From an uncultured Armatimonadota bacterium (GTDB lineage: Bacteria; Armatimonadota; Fimbriimonadia; Fimbriimonadales; Fimbriimonadaceae), in NCBI GenBank assembly GCA_903927025.1, contig CAIYLG010000012.1, positions 1 to 64,000 of the forward strand: DNA of 64,000 nt, written 5' to 3'. This document shows positions 15,200 through 59,334 of this stretch, piece by piece. Made by a program: the position numbers and the translations under genes. Position 1 is the stretch's first letter. Each line of letters opens with the position of its first letter. Under the pieces are notes generated by a model that saw nothing but the letters and a program-made list of their open reading frames with translations, was not told the DNA's origin and did not search any database.

Positions 15200-15500
15200 C
15201 TCCCCTGTCGACGCGTGCTTCTACTGTACAGCGAGATTGAGAAATGTTCGCCGCAACCATGCCAAGGACTCTTCGTACCGTCCGGAACGACCGCCGCCAC
15301 GACTTAACGGTCGGCAACATTGGCTGAAGACTTCATGAATCGTCCCAATTCAGACTATGCTCGGCTTTTGCCGATATTCATGGGGAATGTTTAAGAATTC
15401 ACAGGGTTCTCGTGCCGGAGAATGGATCCCTGGGCGCGCCTCGCCCTGCTCCCCTCCGTGCATTCCCTAAATTCAAACCTTGGGTTTCGGAAGCTGAAAA
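15200..15500. other. intergenic upstream of the WD40 gene
   Basis: About 300 bases that should hold the promoter of the leftward WD40/Ig gene. No clear -35/-10 pair, RNA gene or protein-like frame was found. Confidence 0.4.
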
Positions 15501-15594
15501 ACTGGAGCCCTCGACGAGAATTCTCTGGATCCCGCCGTAGGGAAATGAACGAAGTGAATCGGGACGAACCCGTGACCTCTTCTTTACCAAAGAG
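15501..15594 (-). repeat. interrupted third copy of the tRNA-Thr attachment sequence
   Basis: Bases 15501-15521 and 15565-15594 are together identical to the 3' part of the tRNA-Thr gene at 59260-59334 (T-arm, acceptor stem and CCA end on the minus strand). A 43-base insertion separates the two parts. The right part shares with the copy at 18775 one extra base (G) that the tRNA gene lacks. It is best read as a scar of an older integration at the same tRNA gene. The rest of 15595-15923 has no supported gene. Confidence 0.8.
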
Positions 15595-18133: not shown

Positions 18134-18552
18134 TTCATCTCTCCGTACTTCAAGATCTCGTTGGCGATATCGATCATCGCAATTCCATTTTCCTTCAGCA
18201 TATCCTTCGCCTACTGATGCCGGCCGATGCGGTTGAAGTGCGACCTTAGCTTTGCGCCCGAGCAATAGCGATGATTATTGCGCCAAAGAATGGCCATATC
18301 ATTTATTGACGCCCTCAGTTGCTCAGTCCGTTTCACCGGCATCCGCCGAAGGTAGGCGTCGCTCAAGGCGGACAAATCGTGCCTGGCGTCAAAGTCCGGC
18401 GCAACTCGAACGAGATAGCCCCGAAACATGCACTCGACGGCAAGGCCGGCCGCCAAATGTGCGGCCAAATAATCGCCTCGTGCCTGCGCATTTGTTGCCT
18501 CAACGAACCGCTCGCCGGCCGCCTCTCGATATTCCTGAGCGTCAAAACGCAT
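18121..18552 (-). pseudogene. HEPN-type protein interrupted by an in-frame stop
   Basis: From the Met at 18552 the frame gives MRFDAQEYREAAGERFVEA, then YLAAHLAAGLAVECMFRGYL and FDARHDLSAL, a HEPN-like helical bundle with the H-D-L element. The frame meets TAG at 18211-18213 and then continues in the same frame with AKDMLKENGIAMIDIANEIL and KYGEMKW to TAG at 18121, exactly overlapping the next gene's start. The post-stop residues look like the natural end of the family. A single CAG-to-TAG change would explain it. Either it is a nonsense mutant or there is readthrough. HEPN proteins are often RNases in defence or toxin pairs. Confidence 0.68.
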
Positions 18553-18693
18553 CTTCAAGAGGTTACCAGCAGGGCCACGGCTGGTCGGATCCTTCGAATC
18601 ATTACACACCTGGCTTGACCTCTTCTATGGCATAGAAGTGGTCAGGCGTCTGATGTGAATCGAAGTTTCTCCGGGATGGGCGTGGGTCTCTCA

Positions 18694-18723: not shown

Positions 18724-18774
18724 CCGCGGACAGACCTAATATTATTAGGTGCCACGAAATACTTAGGTACAAAG

Positions 18775-18823
18775 CTGGAGCCCTCGACGAGAATCGAACC
18801 CGTGACCTCTTCTTTACCAAAGA
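18775..18823 (-). repeat. left attachment repeat of the prophage
   Basis: 49 bases identical to 59259-59307, the 3' portion of the tRNA-Thr gene from the anticodon-stem side of the variable region through the CCA end. It marks the left end of the 40.5-kb element. A protein-like reading across it is an artefact of the antisense tRNA sequence. Confidence 0.9.
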
Positions 18824-19053: not shown

Positions 19054-20235
19054 ATGCACAGCCCGAACCTTTCAACTGCTCCAATTGAAACTTCAGAGGT
19101 TCTCAATGACGTCCACGGGTTCTACGAGTTCTTTGCGGGTAGCGGAATGGTGCGAATCGGCTTAGGATCTGGGTGGAACTGTCTGCTCGCCAATGATTTC
19201 AGCAAAGCGAAATGCGCCAGCTACTCTGCTAACTTTGGCGGTGAAGACCTTGTTGAGGGAGACATTGCGATGATTGCGACCGATTCCATTCCTCGTGGGG
19301 CGAGATTGGCTTGGGCCTCATTTCCGTGTCAGGACTTAAGCCTCGCGGGTTCTCGAAATGGCCTGAGTGCCAAACGAAGTGGAACATTTTGGGCTTTCTG
19401 GCAACATATGCAGAAGCTAGAGGCATTGGGAAGTAAAGTGCCGATAATTGCTCTGGAGAACGTAGTCGGCTTGCTATCGTCTGGCGGAGGCGAAGACTTT
19501 AGGAGTCTGATCGAGACACTTTCATGTTCGTACCGCGTTGGGGCAGTAGTGATGGACGCAGTTCACTGGCTTCCTCAAAGCCGGCCCCGTTTGTTCATAG
19601 TAGCCGTCGCGAAAGAGATTGAAGTCCCGGAGCAACTAACGTGTGTCGCACCACGATCCCCGTGGCATCCCATGACGATCCAGAGAGCTTTTGATGGATT
19701 GAGTTCCGATCTCCGAGATGCATGGATTTGGTGGGATATTCCGTGTCCAACGCCACGTGAAACTACATTGATCAACGTCATTGAGCACGAGCCAAAGGGA
19801 GTCAAGTGGAACTCACCTGAAGCAACTCAGCGACTCCTTTCGATGATGTCACCTGCCAACATTGCAAAAGTAAACCAAGCGCGCAAGCGCGGTGTAGAGA
19901 TTGTTGGCACGATCTATAGGCGAACACGACCGACAGAATCTGGAGAACGCCAGCAACGAGCGGAAGTACGGTTCGACGGCGTGTCAGGATGTCTACGGAC
20001 TCCGAGCGGTGGTAGTAGTCGTCAGACGATCTTGGTTGTTAACGGCGATGATGTGCGCTCCCGATTGTTATCCCCCCGTGAGGCGGCCAGGTTGATGGGA
20101 TTGCCGGACACCTACAAACTTCCCGAAAACTACAATGACGCCTACCATTTGGCTGGCGATGGAGTAGCCGTCCCCGCCGTTGAATGGCTTCAGCGTCATC
20201 TGCTGACGCCATTGGTTGAGGCCATGAAGCCGTGA
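19054..20235 (+). CDS. DNA (cytosine-5) methyltransferase of R-M unit 1
   Basis: 393 residues. Methyltransferase motifs are in order: I (FYEFFAGSGM, about 23-32), IV with the catalytic cysteine (FPCQDLSLAG, C92), VI (ALENVVGL), VIII (QSRPRLFIV) and the C-terminal motif IX-X region (LSPREAARLMGLPDTYKLP then LAGDGVAVPAVEWL). The target-recognition region is about 235-330. It transfers a methyl group from S-adenosylmethionine to C5 of cytosine in an unknown site. The next gene starts inside its stop codon (GTGA) and encodes a nuclease-like protein, so this is the modification half of a type II-like R-M pair. Confidence 0.9.
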   Translation: MHSPNLSTAPIETSEVLNDVHGFYEFFAGSGMVRIGLGSGWNCLLANDFSKAKCASYSANFGGEDLVEGDIAMIATDSIPRGARLAWASFPCQDLSLAGSRNGLSAKRSGTFWAFWQHMQKLEALGSKVPIIALENVVGLLSSGGGEDFRSLIETLSCSYRVGAVVMDAVHWLPQSRPRLFIVAVAKEIEVPEQLTCVAPRSPWHPMTIQRAFDGLSSDLRDAWIWWDIPCPTPRETTLINVIEHEPKGVKWNSPEATQRLLSMMSPANIAKVNQARKRGVEIVGTIYRRTRPTESGERQQRAEVRFDGVSGCLRTPSGGSSRQTILVVNGDDVRSRLLSPREAARLMGLPDTYKLPENYNDAYHLAGDGVAVPAVEWLQRHLLTPLVEAMKP

Positions 20236-21101
20236 GGCACCCAGTTGTCCCGTGTGAAATCCTTCCTGAGACTAAAGCGCGAATAGATCAATTTGCTGAG
20301 TCATTGAGAGAAGCCGCGCCTCGCATCGGTGAGCACGGACTGTCAAACGCTGAATTCTGGGAATCAGGTCTGTTCGGTGCTGCGGTTGAGCGATTACGGG
20401 GTCAGCAGGCGGCCTCCACCGCAATTAAGTACGGCTTCGTAAGGTCGATTTTGAGTCAACTTAAGATCGCAGGTGAAATCGCTGAGTTTGATTACACCGG
20501 CACTGGCGAGCGCCACGATTTTGAAGTTATATATCCCGACGGCTTCAAGGTCGCCATCGAAACGAAGGGTTGTCTTGACGGCAACAACACTAACATCTTT
20601 CTCAGACCCGCATCCGCTGACGAATTTGTGATTTGGTCGCTTTGCCAAAATCCTGGTGCCGATCCAAGGCACAATGTCTGGTCAGGAATCCACACTCGAC
20701 TCGGCGCGGAAGTCATTCATAGGAAGGAGCGTGTTGACACACTGGTGGTTTGGGACATGATCTGCGGCACTGTTGGCCGCCCTTGTCCCAAACTTGTTGC
20801 AGAACCGAACCGCGCGGTGGTCCTGTCCGACGGCAAGACGGTTCCTCCGCCTTGCCTATATCTGTTCCCTCGCACAGTCCCAGACGCCAGAAACAACCCG
20901 CATCCGAGATGCTGGTCGATGAATGAACTTCGCTTTGCTTCCAGTCTCTCTCGTGTCTTTGGCACTAATGCAACCGAGGCAGTCAGCGTAAGCATCGAGG
21001 TTAGGATGTCCGGCCCTGACGTCGAAAGGATGACTACGTTTTCGGTCAATGGGTCCATAATCGCTCAATCAGGTTGGACAAAGCTGAGTCGGGCTAGATA
21101 A
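20232..21101 (+). CDS. putative restriction endonuclease of R-M unit 1
   Basis: 289 residues from a GTG overlapping the methyltransferase stop. A PD-(D/E)XK-like core is visible: D96 followed by a strand and then E110-T-K112 (VAIETKG), preceded by helices (AIKYGFVRSILSQLKIAGEI) as in many small REases. It has no membrane segments. The overlap with a cytosine methyltransferase gene makes it the likely cognate nuclease, cutting unmodified DNA at the same site. I do not recognise a named family, and assignment of the catalytic residues is inferred. Confidence 0.7.
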   Translation: MRHPVVPCEILPETKARIDQFAESLREAAPRIGEHGLSNAEFWESGLFGAAVERLRGQQAASTAIKYGFVRSILSQLKIAGEIAEFDYTGTGERHDFEVIYPDGFKVAIETKGCLDGNNTNIFLRPASADEFVIWSLCQNPGADPRHNVWSGIHTRLGAEVIHRKERVDTLVVWDMICGTVGRPCPKLVAEPNRAVVLSDGKTVPPPCLYLFPRTVPDARNNPHPRCWSMNELRFASSLSRVFGTNATEAVSVSIEVRMSGPDVERMTTFSVNGSIIAQSGWTKLSRAR

Positions 21102-21159: not shown

Positions 21160-22191
21160 ATGAAAATAACAGCGATTGATCTATTTTGCGGGGCTGGTGG
21201 CTTGACACATGGCCTTCAGCAAGTTGGCATAGACGTCAAAGCTGGAATTGACGTTGATGCGTGTTGCCAATTTCCTTATGAGTCGAATAATGCCTCAGAA
21301 TTTATCTTGCGCGATGTGCAAGCCCTAACAAGCAACGACTTGCAGGCAATGTTTAACTCATCCGATATTCGGTTGCTTGCGGGCTGTGCGCCTTGTCAAC
21401 CGTTTAGCACCTACTCTCAAGGAAGGAGAGCCAAGAAAGACGATGATCGCTGGAAGCTACTCAACAGATTTGTCGAACTAGTCGACGAATGCAGGCCAGA
21501 ATTAGTGACTATGGAGAATGTGATGGGTCTCCAAAGACACACTATTTTCTCCGAATTTGTTAAGCGGTTACAAGGATTTGGTTATCATGTTAATTGCAAC
21601 ATCTTGTTTGGACCTAAATATGGTTTACCTCAAACTAGAAAGCGATTAGTTGTACTAGCTTCTCGCCTTGGCTGGCCAGAATTACACAAGCCGGACTCCG
21701 AACCGGTCACGGTTCGAGACGCAATCGGCTTGATAGATAGTCTTGAAGCTGGCGAGTGTCACTCAACGGATATTCTCCATAGGGCTTCGGGAATGTCCGA
21801 CATCCAAAAATCTCGGTTACTTGCGTCAACCCCTGGTGGGTCATGGCGAGATTGGCCTGAACACTTAAAGGCCGCATGCCATGCTTCTATGGATCGCACG
21901 TCGTATATCAGTGTTTACGGTCGAATGGAATGGGATCAGCCGTCACCTACGATTACAACACAATTTTACGGCATTGGTCATGGAAGATTTGGGCACCCAG
22001 ATCAACTGCGCGCGATCACTCCACGAGAAGCGGCAATTCTTCAGGGCTTCCCCGCACACTATTCGTTTTTCAAAGAACCAGAGGATTTCGCATTCAATCG
22101 GGCGGGACGAATGATTGGAAACGCAGTCCCGGTTCCGCTTGGAGCACTCATAGGGGAATCATTTACTACCCATGTCAACACGCGAGCTTGA
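21160..22191 (+). CDS. DNA (cytosine-5) methyltransferase of R-M unit 2
   Basis: 343 residues. Motif I is IDLFCGAGGLTHGL (6-19), motif IV GCAPCQPFS with C79, motif VI TMENVMGL, motif VIII LPQTRKRLVVLA, and motifs IX-X RAITPREAAILQGFP then IGNAVPVPLGALI. This is a compact Dcm-type enzyme with a short target-recognition region (about 195-275). Its last 20 bases overlap the start of the GHKL ATPase gene, so the two are coupled. It protects host DNA against the adjacent ATPase-nuclease; this is inferred from context. The pair appears AT-richer by eye than the surrounding late genes, which would suit separate acquisition. Confidence 0.92.
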   Translation: MKITAIDLFCGAGGLTHGLQQVGIDVKAGIDVDACCQFPYESNNASEFILRDVQALTSNDLQAMFNSSDIRLLAGCAPCQPFSTYSQGRRAKKDDDRWKLLNRFVELVDECRPELVTMENVMGLQRHTIFSEFVKRLQGFGYHVNCNILFGPKYGLPQTRKRLVVLASRLGWPELHKPDSEPVTVRDAIGLIDSLEAGECHSTDILHRASGMSDIQKSRLLASTPGGSWRDWPEHLKAACHASMDRTSYISVYGRMEWDQPSPTITTQFYGIGHGRFGHPDQLRAITPREAAILQGFPAHYSFFKEPEDFAFNRAGRMIGNAVPVPLGALIGESFTTHVNTRA

Positions 22192-24127
22192 ACTAGATAT
22201 CCGACTGTCTGTTCTCGATGATCTTGGACTGAGGCTTTATAGCAGCACACCTGCTGTCCTTTCTGAAATCGTTGCGAACGCTTGGGACGCCGATGCGGAT
22301 CTTGTGGAGATCACACTCAACCCAGACGATCAGACAATTGTCATTACGGATAACGGCGAGGGGATGACATTTGAGGAAGCTCAGTCGAGATTCCTAACCG
22401 TCGGTTATCGAAGACGTGACCTCCGCCCTGTACGAACTGATAAATATGATCGCCCGGTCATGGGCAGAAAGGGCATTGGAAAACTAGCACCTCTAGCAAT
22501 TGCTGACAACGTTATTGTTGAAACTAGAAAGGACGGCCAATTTGTTAGCTTTGAACTTGATGTGAATCGTATCCGACAGGATATTAAGGATAATGTCAGA
22601 CACAAGCCACGGATAATTGGTGAAGGGATAACAAGCTCTCCCAATGGAACAACGCTTCGTATCAGCAAGCCCAGACGCCAGTTGCAGTGGGCAGAAGCAG
22701 CGCTCAAAAAGAGACTTGCGAGAAGATTTGCAATCATCGGCCCGTCATATAGTTTTCAGGTTCTGGTAAACGATATTCCTGTGAGCCCCGACGACGTTGA
22801 CTATTACGGCAGGGTCCAGTTTGCTTGGAATTACAATCTCGCTGAATCCGATTCTACACACCAAAAGCTATCGAAACCTCCAAGATGGGAGACTAGATTG
22901 CACGAGTATTTGGATGATTCTACGGGGACAAGCTATCGGTTTACAGGTTGGATTGGCACGGTCGAAAAGACAACAGACCTGGAAGATAACCGCCAGAAAT
23001 TCGGAGGAATAGCTGTTTTCTCCAGGGGAAAGCTCTCTCACGAAGACGCAACGACGCTAGTAGGAGACGATCACCTCTTCACTAAGTACCTTGTTGGTGA
23101 AGTTCAAGCTGACTTTCTAGACGAGGATGGTGCGGAAGATATCGCGACCTCGAACAGGCAAGGACTACTCGAAGATGATCCGCGCGTCGATGTCCTTCGG
23201 AAGTTTCTTGTGCAAGAGCTAAAGTACATCGGAAGTAAGTGGACCGAGTATCGACAAAAACTGGGTGAAGAGAAGGTTGAGGAAAATCCAGGTGTCAAGC
23301 AGTACCTAAACAGCCTACAGCCGGATCCAAGAAAACTGGCAAAACGATTACTAGGAAAAATTTGGGCGGCGAAGGACGACGTCTCAGATAGGGCAGAGCT
23401 AATTCGAGCCGGAATTTTGCTTTGTGAGAATCTAAGAGTGACCGAATCGCTTCACCGAATTGAACAAATGGATGTTGCAGACGTGGAGTCACTGCGCTCA
23501 GCATTTGAGCTTGTCGATGTCCTTCAGGCGACTCAATACAGACAATTAATCGAGGCACGTCACAATGTGATCGAGGTCTTTAAGAAGATCACAAATGACA
23601 ACGAAAAGGAGAAAGTTCTACAGGAGCACATTGCCAAGCACTTGTGGCTACTGAACCCTGGTTGGGATGTCGTCCCAACGAGAGGTGCCCTTGAAGTAGA
23701 GGTTAACCTTAAGGATTTGGCATTGAAATTGAAGGGGACGGGCTCGACAGAAGAGAAGTTAAGGCGCCTGGATATTTTCTATAGTGCTACCAGCACGACG
23801 CACGTGATAATCGAGTTGAAGCGCTATGCGGCCCGGCCGTCGATAGGAGAACTGATTGATCAAGTGAAACTTTACCGTCAGGAAACTCAGAAGATTCTTG
23901 ATAGCTCGGGACGCGGCTCAGAATCTATTGAGATATACATTCTCCTTGGACAACATACCGAAGGAACACCTGCTCAGCGACTTGAAGGCGAGCAGATGCT
24001 TGGCGTGCTGAAAGGACGAATTGTCCTCTATGATGAACTCATCAACCGTGCCCAAAAGCTACACGAGGGATATTTGAACATCACGAGCGATTCGATTCGA
24101 CTGACGACAATCCTAGCAAGTGTCTGA
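22172..24127 (+). CDS. MORC-like GHKL ATPase fused to PD-(D/E)XK nuclease domain
   Basis: 651 residues. The N-terminus is a GHKL ATPase of HATPase_c_3 type: N-box E32-I-V-A-N36-A-W-D39, G1 box D59-N-G-E-G-M, G2 box G97-R-K-G-I-G-K103. A transducer-like region follows to about 330, then a helical region. The C-terminal third (about 480-620) has HLWLLNPGWDVVP, then L533-D534 and I547-E548-L-K550-R, the D...E-x-K arrangement of a Shedu/DUF4263-like nuclease. Prokaryotic MORC-type ATPases linked to REase-fold domains in R-M loci were described by Iyer, Abhiman and Aravind. It is probably an ATP-dependent restriction enzyme working with the overlapping methyltransferase. Confidence 0.82.
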   Translation: MSTRELELDIRLSVLDDLGLRLYSSTPAVLSEIVANAWDADADLVEITLNPDDQTIVITDNGEGMTFEEAQSRFLTVGYRRRDLRPVRTDKYDRPVMGRKGIGKLAPLAIADNVIVETRKDGQFVSFELDVNRIRQDIKDNVRHKPRIIGEGITSSPNGTTLRISKPRRQLQWAEAALKKRLARRFAIIGPSYSFQVLVNDIPVSPDDVDYYGRVQFAWNYNLAESDSTHQKLSKPPRWETRLHEYLDDSTGTSYRFTGWIGTVEKTTDLEDNRQKFGGIAVFSRGKLSHEDATTLVGDDHLFTKYLVGEVQADFLDEDGAEDIATSNRQGLLEDDPRVDVLRKFLVQELKYIGSKWTEYRQKLGEEKVEENPGVKQYLNSLQPDPRKLAKRLLGKIWAAKDDVSDRAELIRAGILLCENLRVTESLHRIEQMDVADVESLRSAFELVDVLQATQYRQLIEARHNVIEVFKKITNDNEKEKVLQEHIAKHLWLLNPGWDVVPTRGALEVEVNLKDLALKLKGTGSTEEKLRRLDIFYSATSTTHVIIELKRYAARPSIGELIDQVKLYRQETQKILDSSGRGSESIEIYILLGQHTEGTPAQRLEGEQMLGVLKGRIVLYDELINRAQKLHEGYLNITSDSIRLTTILASV

Positions 24128-55422: not shown

Positions 55423-56403
55423 TTAGGCTGACAACACCTTGCCGATCCAATCAAAGACAGCCTGAGCAACCGGTACAACAATGCCGTCGCCGCACGCATG
55501 CCGTCTTTGTGCATCTGATCCGATGCATGCCGTGAATCCGGCTGGAAGCCCCATCAACTCTTCGTGTGCCGTGACAGACAGCTTATGTACCTGTCCATCC
55601 CATCGGACAATTGCGCGGCCCGTCTTGGTGAGTGTCACCATATGCCCAATTCCAAAACTACTATTCGAATGATTGCAGTGAAAAATCGGTTTGCTTCGCC
55701 AACTGTCTGGAACTTTGCCGACACCGATAAAGCTGTCTGCTAGGTGCTCAAAGCCAGGCTTGCCGTGTCTGTTTATTCTGTTTCGCAAGTTCGAAAGTGT
55801 CTCAGGCTTCACGACGTCCCCAAGCCAGTTCTGAGGCACTGAAGACAGATTCACGACACTTGATGGCACTCTGAAGGCGACTCGGTTGACAGGACGATCT
55901 TTGCGAACATACACCAAAAACAGTCGCTTGCGGGATTGTGCGAGCCAGTTCTGAGAACTGAGTGTCTCGCGAAAGATCAGGTGATAGCCAAGTCCCTCGA
56001 TCAAGTTGAGACAGGTTTCGACATCCTTTACACGTGTGCTGTACAGCATCGCTGGAACGTTTTCGATCAGGACAACTTCGGGCCGCACTTCATCAACAAG
56101 CCGGATGGCTTCGAACAGTAAGGCTCCGCGATCATCGTTCAAACCCTCTGCCATACGGTTGCCGACGCTAAAACTAGGACAGGGTGTCGAAACAAACAGT
56201 AGGTTGGGATCGCACAAGTCGCGGCCACAGACAGTTCGCAGATCGGCAAGATGCCTTGCTGTTGGATAATGGAAAGCAAGACATTTTCGCCTCGCGTCGT
56301 CAATCTCAACTGTTGAAACGCATTGCGCGCCGGACAGTTCGGCTCCGTAACTTCCTAACCCGGCTCCCGCGGCCAATGAGGCGAAGCGAATTCGAGCGTT
56401 CAT
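55423..56403 (-). CDS. third DNA (cytosine-5) methyltransferase, PCP variant
   Basis: 326 residues from MNARIRFASLAAGAGLGSYG at 56403, whose ATG overlaps the upstream stop. Motif I is FASLAAGAGLGS; motif IV is STPCPSFSVG with C75, so the usual P-C-Q is P-C-P. Motif VI is VVLIENVPAML, motif VIII AQSRKRLFLVYV, and the C-terminal motifs are TAHEELMGLPAGF and CGDGIVVPVAQAVFDWI. No adjacent nuclease is evident, so it may be an orphan phage methyltransferase that shields phage DNA from host restriction. Confidence 0.88.
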   Translation of the reverse strand: MNARIRFASLAAGAGLGSYGAELSGAQCVSTVEIDDARRKCLAFHYPTARHLADLRTVCGRDLCDPNLLFVSTPCPSFSVGNRMAEGLNDDRGALLFEAIRLVDEVRPEVVLIENVPAMLYSTRVKDVETCLNLIEGLGYHLIFRETLSSQNWLAQSRKRLFLVYVRKDRPVNRVAFRVPSSVVNLSSVPQNWLGDVVKPETLSNLRNRINRHGKPGFEHLADSFIGVGKVPDSWRSKPIFHCNHSNSSFGIGHMVTLTKTGRAIVRWDGQVHKLSVTAHEELMGLPAGFTACIGSDAQRRHACGDGIVVPVAQAVFDWIGKVLSA

Positions 56404-56810
56404 ATCCGCTCGAATTCCTGCAAGAATAATCGAGCGGACTCCGCATTGGTCACCTTTTTCCTTGTGCTCGACCTCACCCATGCTTTTGCACGGAAATCCT
56501 TGTCGAACCAAACATTAATGCCCTCCACACGAACGACAGTAACGATGATCCGTTCGCGGCCAGCAATCTTCGTTCGCTTTCGAAACCGCGCACCTTCCTG
56601 GAATATCTCCGTCAAGTTGAAAGGCGTATTGAGCGTTGCTGTCTTGGCTGTATTTGGCGACTCCACGACTGTGACAGGTATTTCCACCTTGGCCGTGGCC
56701 GCAGGGGGTTCCGGCGGTCCTTCCGCCAGTGTCTTTTCGATCAGGGATGCCAGTAGCGCCTCAGGGTTTGAGGACAGAGAAAGTAGCCTCTTAATCTTGT
56801 CGTTTTCCAT
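56400..56810 (-). CDS. hypothetical protein upstream of the methyltransferase
   Basis: 136 residues. A helical N-terminus (MENDKIKRLLSLSSNPEALL) and a Pro/Ala linker lead to a beta-rich C-terminal part (GARFRKRTKIAGRERIIVTV, NVWFDKDFRAKAWVRS). It is coupled to the methyltransferase by an ATGA overlap. It could be a regulatory or DNA-binding partner; no family is recognised. Confidence 0.58.
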   Translation of the reverse strand: MENDKIKRLLSLSSNPEALLASLIEKTLAEGPPEPPAATAKVEIPVTVVESPNTAKTATLNTPFNLTEIFQEGARFRKRTKIAGRERIIVTVVRVEGINVWFDKDFRAKAWVRSSTRKKVTNAESARLFLQEFERI

Positions 56811-57448: not shown

Positions 57449-57790
57449 GTGTCCAGCATCACGAGCCAGAGAGACTACGCTAGCGCCACTGCAAAGAACA
57501 AGTTGGGTTTGACCACCACAACTTTGGGAAAGGGGATGGAGCTGTTTTCATCCCCAATCCCTTTCAGAGTCGATATGGAAATTCCGCAGTCATCAAAGTC
57601 GCAAACGATGGAAGTAGCTCCCCTGTTACTTCCCGTCCGGGTGGTGGCGAAAATGTTGGGAAGATCGAAGTCGCGGATTTACGAACTTTGCCTATACGGT
57701 GAGCTTCGCTCGATCAAGGACGGTGCCTCGATTTTGATCCCCGCCGACGAACCAGCGAAATGGCTTGCCCGGAAGCTGAAGCAACGCTAG
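57449..57790 (+). CDS. excisionase-like HTH protein
   Basis: 113 residues, but the true start may be at 57536, 57575 or 57608. The conserved part is LLLPVRVVAKMLGRSKSRIY, ELCLYGELRSIKDGASILIP and ADEPAKWLARKLKQR, an HTH_17 / Xis-type domain. It converges on the integrase gene; the two stop codons overlap at CTAG (57787-57790). An Xis role fits its place beside the integrase. A 7-bp hairpin (GGGGATG / CATCCCC) lies inside its 5' part. Confidence 0.62.
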   Translation: MSSITSQRDYASATAKNKLGLTTTTLGKGMELFSSPIPFRVDMEIPQSSKSQTMEVAPLLLPVRVVAKMLGRSKSRIYELCLYGELRSIKDGASILIPADEPAKWLARKLKQR

Positions 57791-59148
57791 AGCTTCCAGC
57801 CCCCTGACAGTCTTCTCTGCGCGTCCTTGAACGCTTGCGTAGTTATGTCGGTGTAGCTCTTGAACGTGACTGTGTCGCCCGTGTGACCCATCAAGCCCAT
57901 GCGTGTTGGTTCCGGTATGCCGACTTCAGCGGCGTAGCTGGCAAATGAGTTCCGCGTGTCTCGGAAGACGATCTTGTCCCAAACATTGGGAAGATGTATC
58001 TTGCGTTGCTTTGCGAGCGTGATAACAGAATTCAAGTCTTTGTTATCTGTCTTTTCGCCTTTCGCCACCAACGTCATTCGTGAACAGAGTGTTGTCCAAG
58101 CAATGCGAAAGTTAGCAGCCTGTTTCAGCTTTCCGTCAGCAGTTCCAAAAACCAAACCGTCGCCATTTTCCTTGAGTCGCTTCATGATCGGTAGGAGTTG
58201 GTCGGGCACTGCCACCCATCTGTATCTGGGTTCGGCTTGTGTTCCGCGTTTCGGATACGACAACGCCTGAGGCACCACGTCGCCGTAGGGAACGCCATCC
58301 TCATCGACGTGACGCGCATGTCGCCGGAGGGCACGGTCAACAAGAACGGCTTTCTTTTCCAGGTCGATTCGTTTCCCTCGCAAAGCCATGACTTCACCGT
58401 GTCTCATCCCTGTGAGCATCCCAATGGTGAACATGTCGGCGATCCATCGGACTAACAGTCCTCGCTCGACTAAACAGTCCAAGACAAACATGACGTTGGC
58501 GAAGTCTTGGCTTTCCATCGTCGTCCGTGCGCGCATTGAAGGAGCAATAGATTGGAGATTCTCAAATGGATTGAGCATCTCAAAGAACTCCATATCAATT
58601 GCGGTTTTGAAGTATCCACCCAGGTCGATTCGACACTCTTTGAGTTGCGACAAGCCTTTTTCGCCTTGGAGTTTGGCTTCCATCTCCGTAACCCATTCCT
58701 GAGCGTGTCTGCGTCTAACTGTCTGAAGCGGCCACTCACCCCAATACGGCTCGATGTGGTTCTTCCATCGTCCTTCTTTCGCTGAAGCCCGGACACGGCT
58801 GAGATTCTTCCAGGTGTGCGCCCTACAGTATTCGTACAGATCGCCCACTGTGTGAATTCCGTCGTTCGTTGACGACTTGACCAAAACTTGACCAATTCCG
58901 CCTTCTTTGCGGTTTTCGGGGCGCGTCGATTCTGCGTATTTGACAGCGTCTTCAGGCTTGGCGAATGACTTCACGGGAAATCGGACAGGACGACCGCGTT
59001 CCGTTCGCCTGACTTTCACCACCCATCTCCCATTTGGCGTCTCTTTTGTGCGGTACTGGGTTGCCGACGAGAAATACACGCTCTCGCCAGTGTGGAGGCG
59101 TCTGTTTAGCTTGTCAGAAAGCTCGGGTTTCTTTCCCAAATCGCTCAT
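57787..59148 (-). CDS. tyrosine-type phage integrase
   Basis: 453 residues. An N-terminal arm-binding part (about 20-90) and a core-binding SAM-like domain (about 100-200, TVGDLYEYCRAHTWKNL ... HAQEWVTEMEAKL) precede the catalytic domain. The catalytic residues are R249 in GMLTGMRHGEVMAL, R399 in FRDTRNSFAS, H422 in LMGHTGDTVT and Y432 in FKSYTD. The box II histidine is replaced (R-D-T-R instead of H-x-L-R), which still occurs in some integrases. The gene reads away from the tRNA-Thr site, where it inserts the phage. A leaderless or weakly signalled start lies ~110 bases from the attachment site. Confidence 0.93.
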   Translation of the reverse strand: MSDLGKKPELSDKLNRRLHTGESVYFSSATQYRTKETPNGRWVVKVRRTERGRPVRFPVKSFAKPEDAVKYAESTRPENRKEGGIGQVLVKSSTNDGIHTVGDLYEYCRAHTWKNLSRVRASAKEGRWKNHIEPYWGEWPLQTVRRRHAQEWVTEMEAKLQGEKGLSQLKECRIDLGGYFKTAIDMEFFEMLNPFENLQSIAPSMRARTTMESQDFANVMFVLDCLVERGLLVRWIADMFTIGMLTGMRHGEVMALRGKRIDLEKKAVLVDRALRRHARHVDEDGVPYGDVVPQALSYPKRGTQAEPRYRWVAVPDQLLPIMKRLKENGDGLVFGTADGKLKQAANFRIAWTTLCSRMTLVAKGEKTDNKDLNSVITLAKQRKIHLPNVWDKIVFRDTRNSFASYAAEVGIPEPTRMGLMGHTGDTVTFKSYTDITTQAFKDAQRRLSGGWKL

Positions 59149-59258
59149 GAAGTGATATATATCACATCGCGTCTGGTCAAGTTTTGGTCAAGTTTCGTGT
59201 TTTGGAGCGCAAATCCGATGCAGTAACTTCGAGATTTTTGCTGATTTGAACCTAAAAA

Positions 59259-59307
59259 CTGGAGCCCTCGACGAGAATCGAACCCGTGACCTCTTCTTTA
59301 CCAAAGA
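59259..59307 (-). repeat. right attachment repeat (within tRNA-Thr)
   Basis: 49 bases identical to 18775-18823, covering the 3' half of the tRNA-Thr gene. Recombination with the left copy would release a ~40.5-kb circle and leave an intact tRNA gene. Confidence 0.9.
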
Positions 59308-59334
59308 AGTGCTCTGCCGCTGAGCTACGAGGGC
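59260..59334 (-). tRNA. tRNA-Thr(GGT)
   Basis: Acceptor stem GCCCTCG / CGAGGGC, D-arm GCTCAGCGGCAGAGC, anticodon stem CTTCT / AGAAG around the loop TTGGTAA (anticodon GGT, reads ACC and ACU), T-arm ACGGGTTCGATTCTCGT and an encoded CCA end. It is intact and is the integration site of the prophage. Confidence 0.95.

What the first reader, a model, noticed from the sequence alone, without database searches (positions are those of the whole stretch)
21160..24127. Cytosine methyltransferase coupled to a MORC-like GHKL ATPase with a C-terminal nuclease domain
The ATPase carries intact N, G1 and G2 boxes and a Shedu/DUF4263-like D...E-x-K region, and its start overlaps the methyltransferase. This is the R-M-linked bacterial MORC type described by comparative genomics. 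ATP use by a single-chain MORC-nuclease in restriction is poorly studied, and here it is phage cargo.
Basis: partly seen in the sequence, partly recalled or inferred. Interest (0 to 1): 0.7.

Follow-up and report, generated by a model that had tools for sequence, protein, structure and literature searches.

The report
Prophage-borne MORC-like restriction enzyme with methyltransferase
A bacterial virus hidden in this genome carries a two-gene immune system, a DNA-marking enzyme plus an ATP-binding DNA-cutting enzyme of an already named restriction-enzyme family whose ATP-binding part resembles human MORC proteins.

Summary
But the protein has a name: it matches NCBI's curated 'BbrUII/HgiDII family restriction enzyme' full-length, over the cut-off (611.7 vs 550 bits). 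By architecture it is the paraMORC3 type of Iyer et al. 2008. Its nuclease domain is homologous to that of methyltransferase-free GHKL-Shedu proteins; the published example VcSduA needs both ATPase and nuclease residues for phage defence. A C5 methyltransferase lies within 3 kb in 53 of 56 close relatives and in 0 of 9 of the Shedu-like branch. The ATPase model fits MORC2-4 best. The genes lie just inside attL of a 40.5-kb prophage in a tRNA-Thr gene, so 'phage cargo' holds; many viral contigs carry the pair. Most likely a working R-M system, probably reading GTCGAC (indirect support only), in which ATP closes a MORC-like clamp on unmethylated DNA and pairs two nuclease domains. New member of a known kind; the open point is what ATP does in an enzyme filed as Type II.

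The parts
21160..22191 (+). M gene: C5-cytosine DNA methyltransferase (343 aa), HgiDII/BbrUII-type partner
   Evidence: PF00145 1.6e-51; TIGR00675 dcm over cut-off; PADLOC Type II MTase models; target-recognition region as conserved as the catalytic core among the family's partner MTases
22172..24127 (+). R gene: GHKL-S5-helical-PD-(D/E)XK restriction enzyme (651 aa), BbrUII/HgiDII family, paraMORC3 architecture
   Evidence: NF050001 611.7 bits vs cut-off 550, residues 7-650; PADLOC REase_II PDLC03419 9e-69
22196..23254 (+). GHKL + S5 (transducer) ATPase module, residues 9-361
   Evidence: model m14d944e46309 (mean pLDDT 81.7); best PDB matches mouse MORC3 Z 25.7, other MORC2-4 entries Z 22.3-25.1, SMCHD1 22.8, Hsp90 about 20-23
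22265..22279 (+). N box, E32...N36
   Evidence: 52 of 52 rows identical at E32 and N36
22349..22363 (+). G1 box, D60-x-G62-x-G64
   Evidence: 52 of 52 rows identical at D60 and G64
22463..22483 (+). G2 box, G98-R-K-G-I-G-K104
   Evidence: 52 of 52 rows identical at G98, K100, G103, K104
23180..23596 (+). helical region, residues 337-475
   Evidence: helices 337-369, 373-381, 384-400, 404-432, 438-475 in the model
23597..24127 (+). C-terminal Shedu-like PD-(D/E)XK nuclease domain, residues 476-651: E480, D534, E548-x-K550, Q564, Y568
   Evidence: conservation; profile match to GHKL-Shedu C-terminal domains; Shedu hits in 12 of 52 relatives
19054..20235 (+). M1: second C5 methyltransferase, of a neighbouring, separate R-M pair
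   Evidence: PF00145 1.6e-38; adjacent to R1 in 26 of 26 viral relatives
20232..21101 (+). R1: restriction enzyme of the neighbouring pair
   Evidence: PADLOC REase_II PDLC03501 5.2e-92; no Pfam or NCBIfam hit
18771..18823 (.). attL: 53-nt copy of the 3' part of tRNA-Thr
   Evidence: 98% identical to 59255-59307
59255..59307 (.). attR, at the 3' end of the intact tRNA-Thr gene 59260-59334 (-)
57787..59148 (-). integrase next to attR
   Evidence: phrog_1 integrase 3.6e-37

Best explanation
A complete two-gene restriction-modification system carried as prophage cargo. The methyltransferase marks a cytosine in each strand of a short palindrome, most likely GTCGAC, throughout the lysogen's DNA. 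The partner is the restriction enzyme. Its GHKL module binds ATP and dimerises, as MORC and MutL do, closing a clamp round DNA; in the closed dimer two C-terminal PD-(D/E)XK domains meet at an unmethylated site and cut both strands; hydrolysis resets the clamp. The lysogen is thereby protected from competing phages, and the prophage is favoured. Shown here: the genes, motifs, family membership, genetic linkage, prophage setting and MORC-like model. Inferred: restriction itself, the site, and the ATP-gated clamp order of events.
For: Curated restriction-enzyme family over cut-off across the full length; same name in RefSeq for relatives in E. coli, a copy of the PhiR44_1 pair being in 30 of 5,426 genomes. 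C5 MTase within 3 kb in 53 of 56 non-redundant close relatives, 34 on the same strand and 19 on the opposite one, so linkage survives rearrangement. All ATP-box residues tested and E480/D534/E548 kept in 52 of 52 rows, so both activities are under selection. MORC2-4 are the best structural matches. Both kinds of residue were shown necessary in VcSduA (passages). Site: M.HgiDII is an experimentally characterised GTCGAC m5C enzyme (passage); between the window and 55 other family partner MTases the target-recognition region is as conserved (42-57%) as the catalytic core (43-56%), whereas for the unrelated M1 it is 15% vs 24%. Prophage borders and integrase.
Against: No activity data for this pair. 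The site is not supported by avoidance: 44 non-redundant viral carriers do not avoid GTCGAC more than other palindromes (196 seen, 255.9 expected; rank 24 of 64), and control contigs without the enzyme avoid it more (97 vs 178.4; rank 2). The window protein scores only 611.7 bits against NF050001 where two phylum relatives score 787 and 745, and it sits on a long end branch (1.33), so its specificity could have drifted. HgiDII and BbrUII were found as ordinary Type II enzymes (recalled); whether they need ATP I could not read.
Confidence: 0.8

Rival explanations
1. The GHKL protein is a Shedu-type defence nuclease that senses infection (for example DNA ends) by itself, and the methyltransferase is only a neighbour or an accessory that keeps it from attacking self.
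For: Nuclease domain is homologous to that of the MTase-free GHKL-Shedu branch, and that branch matches solved SduA (8ti8, E 0.0046). VcSduA acts without an MTase. In 19 of 53 linked relatives the MTase is on the opposite strand.
Against: Linkage in 53 of 56, against 0 of 9 in the MTase-free branch, which forms a separate clade (SH-aLRT 100; label changes 5 vs 12.5 in shuffles, 0 of 500 as low). NF050001 is named after known restriction enzymes.
Confidence: 0.12
2. The protein is the ATPase/nuclease subunit of one larger system with the upstream pair M1-R1 (19054-21101).
For: Four genes on one strand within 5.1 kb; one viral contig of 26 has a GHKL gene right behind M1-R1 (L250).
Against: M1-R1 occur together without a GHKL gene in 25 of 26 viral contigs, and the GHKL gene has its own overlapping M gene; 53 of 56 relatives have one nearby.
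Confidence: 0.03
3. A decayed or silent remnant kept only as prophage baggage, with the M gene active and the R gene not.
For: The protein is divergent within its family (end branch 1.33); no expression data.
Against: Both frames are open over full length and every tested catalytic residue is kept.
Confidence: 0.05

Closest known systems
BbrUII/HgiDII family restriction enzymes (NCBIfam NF050001)
   Same: Full-length match over the equivalog cut-off; adjacent C5 MTase
   Different: One of the more divergent members; site not determined
paraMORC3 (Iyer, Abhiman, Aravind 2008, PMC2292703)
   Same: GHKL + S5 + C-terminal restriction-fold domain with E-D-ExK
   Different: A subset of paraMORC3 genes stand alone; this one has an overlapping cytosine MTase gene
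VcSduA, GHKL Shedu (type I-D) of Vibrio cholerae (PMC12137116, 2025)
   Same: N-terminal GHKL ATPase, C-terminal Shedu-like PD-(D/E)xK nuclease
   Different: VcSduA is a single-gene system; the Shedu-like branch found here is about 585 aa, has no C5 MTase nearby and forms its own clade, while the window protein lies in the MTase-linked clade
ParaMORC3 + Dcm of Escherichia phage PhiR44_1 (PV340563)
   Same: Same enzyme pair as cargo of a phage, 33% identity
   Different: The two genes are convergent and lie between the portal gene and the replication gene gpA
MutL / eukaryotic MORC2-4
   Same: ATPase module fold (mouse MORC3 Z 25.7; E. coli MutL Z 17.4)
   Different: Carries its own Shedu-like nuclease; no CW domain found

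Membership tests
BbrUII/HgiDII restriction enzymes (NF050001) | Whole-protein score over the curated cut-off | tested here: met
   611.7 vs 550 bits, residues 7-650 of 651 to model 2-658 of 659
BbrUII/HgiDII restriction enzymes (NF050001) | Cognate m5C methyltransferase next door | tested here: met
   21160-22191, overlapping
BbrUII/HgiDII restriction enzymes (NF050001) | Recognition of GTCGAC | tested here: inconclusive
   TRD conservation in favour; avoidance test gives no support
BbrUII/HgiDII restriction enzymes (NF050001) | Site-specific double-strand cleavage | not testable with these tools
   needs enzyme
paraMORC3 | GHKL domain with the ATP motifs followed by S5 domain | tested here: met
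paraMORC3 | C-terminal restriction-fold domain with E-D-ExK | tested here: met
   E480, D534, E548-x-K550; profile match; fold of the isolated domain not searched
MORC proper | S5 motif GhXhhpXXRhl | tested here: not met
   window has GIAVFSRGKL followed by S: K for R and S for the last aliphatic; motif as printed in PMC2292703
Shedu (SduA) | SduA_C / DUF4263 domain | tested here: inconclusive
   window: no Pfam hit at E<=1; 12 of 52 relatives hit PF14082; hhalign to GHKL-Shedu domains 98.3
Type II restriction-modification | Cleavage without ATP | not testable with these tools
   intact ATP site raises the question; no assay

The most novel reading that the evidence does not exclude
The BbrUII/HgiDII enzymes, filed as orthodox Type II, are ATP-gated MORC-like clamp nucleases, and they and the methyltransferase-free GHKL-Shedu proteins are two branches of one machine that differ only in how self is spared: by methylation in one, by infection sensing in the other. 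An NTP-dependent restriction class would then be hidden under a Type II label, with a close bacterial counterpart of eukaryotic MORC silencers as its motor.
Probability: 0.35. Interest if true: 0.65.

Novelty: new member of a known kind. Interest (0 to 1): 0.32.

Why it matters
The pair itself is a further member of a named family. Its use is as a test case: a single chain with an intact MORC-like ATPase and a nuclease, paired with a methylase of likely known site, makes the role of ATP in this class directly testable, and allows restriction to be compared with methyltransferase-free Shedu defence in one architecture. It also documents that this R-M type is common cargo of viral contigs.

Tried and rejected
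Site from avoidance. The prophage (18771-59307) has 1 GTCGAC, at 21481 inside the M gene, against 18.9 expected, rank 4 of 64 palindromes, which looked like support. It is not: several palindromes are as depleted there (CGATCG 0/33.5, AAGCTT 0/21.1, ATCGAT 0/21.0), and over 44 non-redundant viral carriers (of 54; 10 near-copies dropped) GTCGAC ranks 24 of 64, while 24 non-redundant control contigs (of 26) rank it 2. I dropped the idea.

O'Connell Motherway 2009 and Gu 2025 are not held; Dusterhoft 1991 was seen only as a citation.

Empty site: flanks searched in 20 genomes of the genus hit mainly the tRNA genes themselves, so I could not show an empty site in a relative; the element's borders rest on the repeat and the integrase.

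The whole-model fold searches are filled by the ATPase domain; no nuclease appears in the rows shown, which does not count against it. A search of PDB sequences with the C-terminal profile gave 0 matches. A library search for PhiR44 found nothing relevant. The host was not identified.

Full report
WHAT IS THERE. The first is a C5 cytosine DNA methyltransferase (PF00145, 1.6e-51). The second has an N-terminal GHKL ATPase (PF13589, 2.7e-19; PF02518, 9.2e-6) and no other Pfam domain at E<=1.

WHAT IT IS. NCBIfam settles the name: NF050001, 'BbrUII/HgiDII family restriction enzyme', an equivalog model, matched from residue 7 to 650 with 611.7 bits against a cut-off of 550. PADLOC's Type II restriction-enzyme models agree. 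RefSeq uses the same name for relatives in E. coli, where a near-identical copy of the PhiR44_1 gene pair is in 30 of 5,426 complete genomes; other copies there are called 'ATP-binding protein'. Within the window's phylum, 3 of 291 genomes searched are over the cut-off, this one included. With the protein as query the genome has one match, itself.

MOTIFS. I aligned the protein with 51 relatives, mostly from viral contigs. The ATP-binding residues E32, N36, D60, G64, G98, K100, G103 and K104 are identical in 52 of 52 rows; so are E480, R532, D534, E548 and Y568; K550 and Q564 are kept in 43 of 52.

STRUCTURE. A model on 52 sequences has mean pLDDT 81.7, pTM 0.70, with low confidence at residues 500-514 and 529-532. 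Among solved structures the ATPase module (residues 9-361 and somewhat beyond) matches mouse MORC3 best (Z 25.7, rmsd 2.9, 296 aligned), then other MORC3, MORC2 and MORC4 entries (Z 22.3-25.1), SMCHD1 (22.8) and Hsp90 proteins (to 22.8); a shallower model gave a similar order with MutL at Z 17.4. Foldseek's own ranking puts Hsp90/TRAP1 first by E-value. 'MORC-like' is therefore fair, with Hsp90 close behind. The strict MORC S5 motif printed by Iyer et al. is met only approximately, so the paraMORC3 label fits better: GHKL, S5, then a C-terminal restriction-fold nuclease with E-D-ExK (section read).

THE NUCLEASE DOMAIN. Three lines support PD-(D/E)XK of the Shedu kind. Pfam's SduA_C matches 12 of 52 relatives. 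The profile of 16 family C-terminal domains aligns with that of 8 GHKL-Shedu proteins, probability 98.3, E 1.9e-14, with the E480, D534, E548/K550 and Q564 columns in register; a methyltransferase control gives 0.2 with either profile. The GHKL-Shedu profile in turn finds solved SduA 8ti8 (E 0.0046), and all five members of that branch that I scanned hit SduA_C, one over the gathering score. Against: the family profile itself finds no PDB chain, the window protein alone has no Pfam nuclease hit, and the isolated domain was not folded.

LINKAGE AND TREE. Of 94 non-redundant GHKL proteins placed in a tree (those with own-profile score of at least 120 and 500 aa; shorter and weaker rows dropped), 81 have a C5 methyltransferase within 3 kb. 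Among the 56 close relatives (score 480 or more) it is 53; 34 on the same strand, 24 of them touching or overlapping, and 19 on the opposite strand. A separate clade of nine proteins of about 585 aa, the Shedu-like ones, has none (SH-aLRT 100). The label needs 5 changes on the tree against 12.5 in shuffles, none of 500 as low; near-copies inflate this. The window lies at the base of the 62-row clade (59 MTase-linked) on a long branch, and that placing is not strongly supported.

SETTING. A 53-nt copy of the tRNA-Thr 3' end at 18771-18823 repeats that at 59255-59307 (98%); the intact tRNA-Thr is at 59260-59334, and an integrase (phrog_1, 3.6e-37) abuts it at 57787-59148. Portal and tail hits lie between. 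So the R-M genes are inside a 40.5-kb prophage, just within attL. Upstream, 19054-21101 is a second, independent R-M pair: its two genes are adjacent in 26 of 26 viral relatives, only one of which has a GHKL gene nearby. The GHKL pair is common cargo: 114 of 144 matched stretches of viral contigs encode relatives, of which the best 80 were kept, and one sequenced phage has a gene annotated ParaMORC3 beside Dcm, among genes named as in P2. In the phage collection it was one of two records matched.

HOW IT LIKELY WORKS. Methylation by the M enzyme spares the lysogen. The R enzyme binds ATP, dimerises through its GHKL heads, closes on DNA and brings two nuclease domains to an unmethylated palindrome. 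Shown here: intact sites and fold. Shown by others in a protein of the same architecture: both ATPase (E27A) and nuclease (K557A) residues are needed for defence by VcSduA, and a dimer with a clamp-like middle domain is predicted (passages of PMC12137116). Inferred: the order of events and that it applies here.

THE SITE. M.HgiDII is reported as an m5C enzyme for GTCGAC (passage of PMC5867850); that BbrUII has the same site is recalled. The region between motifs VIII and IX, where C5 enzymes read their site, is 42-57% identical between the window and the 55 other family MTases, the same as the core (43-56%); for unrelated M1 it is 15% against 24%. When specificity differs this region usually diverges more than the core (established knowledge), so one shared site is likely. 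A palindrome-avoidance test gave no support. I put GTCGAC at about 0.6.

NOVELTY. The enzyme type, its R-M linkage, its MORC kinship and its occurrence in phages are in print or in public annotation. What is not settled in anything I could read (searches; 8 of 10 allowed) is whether the BbrUII/HgiDII enzymes use ATP. Papers seen: PMC2292703 first part, section 5 and passages; PMC12137116, PMC8011034, PMC5867850 and PMC4618763 passages only; the rest as search listings.

Noticed in passing
window 19054-21101: A second R-M pair (C5 MTase plus a restriction enzyme with no Pfam or NCBIfam match, PADLOC PDLC03501); the two genes are adjacent in 26 of 26 viral relatives.
   Followed up: partly
window 55423-56511 (-): A third C5 cytosine methyltransferase in the same prophage (PF00145 2e-34; phrog_116); no nuclease partner was looked for.
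   Followed up: no
window 18771-59307: Strong avoidance of several 6-nt palindromes in the prophage: CGATCG 0 of 33.5 expected, AAGCTT 0 of 21.1, ATCGAT 0 of 21.0, GTCGAC 1 of 18.9, CTCGAG 0 of 14.2; the rest of the window holds 13 GTCGAC.
   Followed up: partly
window 15497-15594: A third, interrupted copy of the tRNA-Thr att sequence left of attL, and several copies on one contig of a same-genus genome (G093:C155): perhaps a tRNA-Thr insertion hot spot with tandem elements.
   Followed up: no
L109, L111, L117, L118, L120, L123, L112, L035, L032 (nuclease domain): Nine distant MTase-linked relatives carry E-F-M-R where others have E-x-K, and R for Q in the following helix: a variant or altered active site.
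   Followed up: no
L006:5544-7432: The ATPase half (381 aa) and the nuclease half (290 aa) are separate overlapping ORFs in this viral contig: a split gene or a frameshift.
   Followed up: no
plasmids NZ_CP021355, NC_008762: Methyltransferases about 50% identical to this M gene lie at or beside genes annotated MAE_28990/MAE_18760 family HEPN-like nuclease: the same MTase type may have changed partners.
   Followed up: no
G000:C12:179016-179525: A second GHKL protein gene on the same contig (686-aa open frame, 65.5 bits to NF050001, below cut-off).
   Followed up: no
L250:7411-11659: One viral contig has a distant GHKL gene directly behind an M1-R1 pair.
   Followed up: no
window 18211-18609 (-): ORF left of attL with a weak HEPN domain match (E 0.0091, below cut-off).
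   Followed up: no
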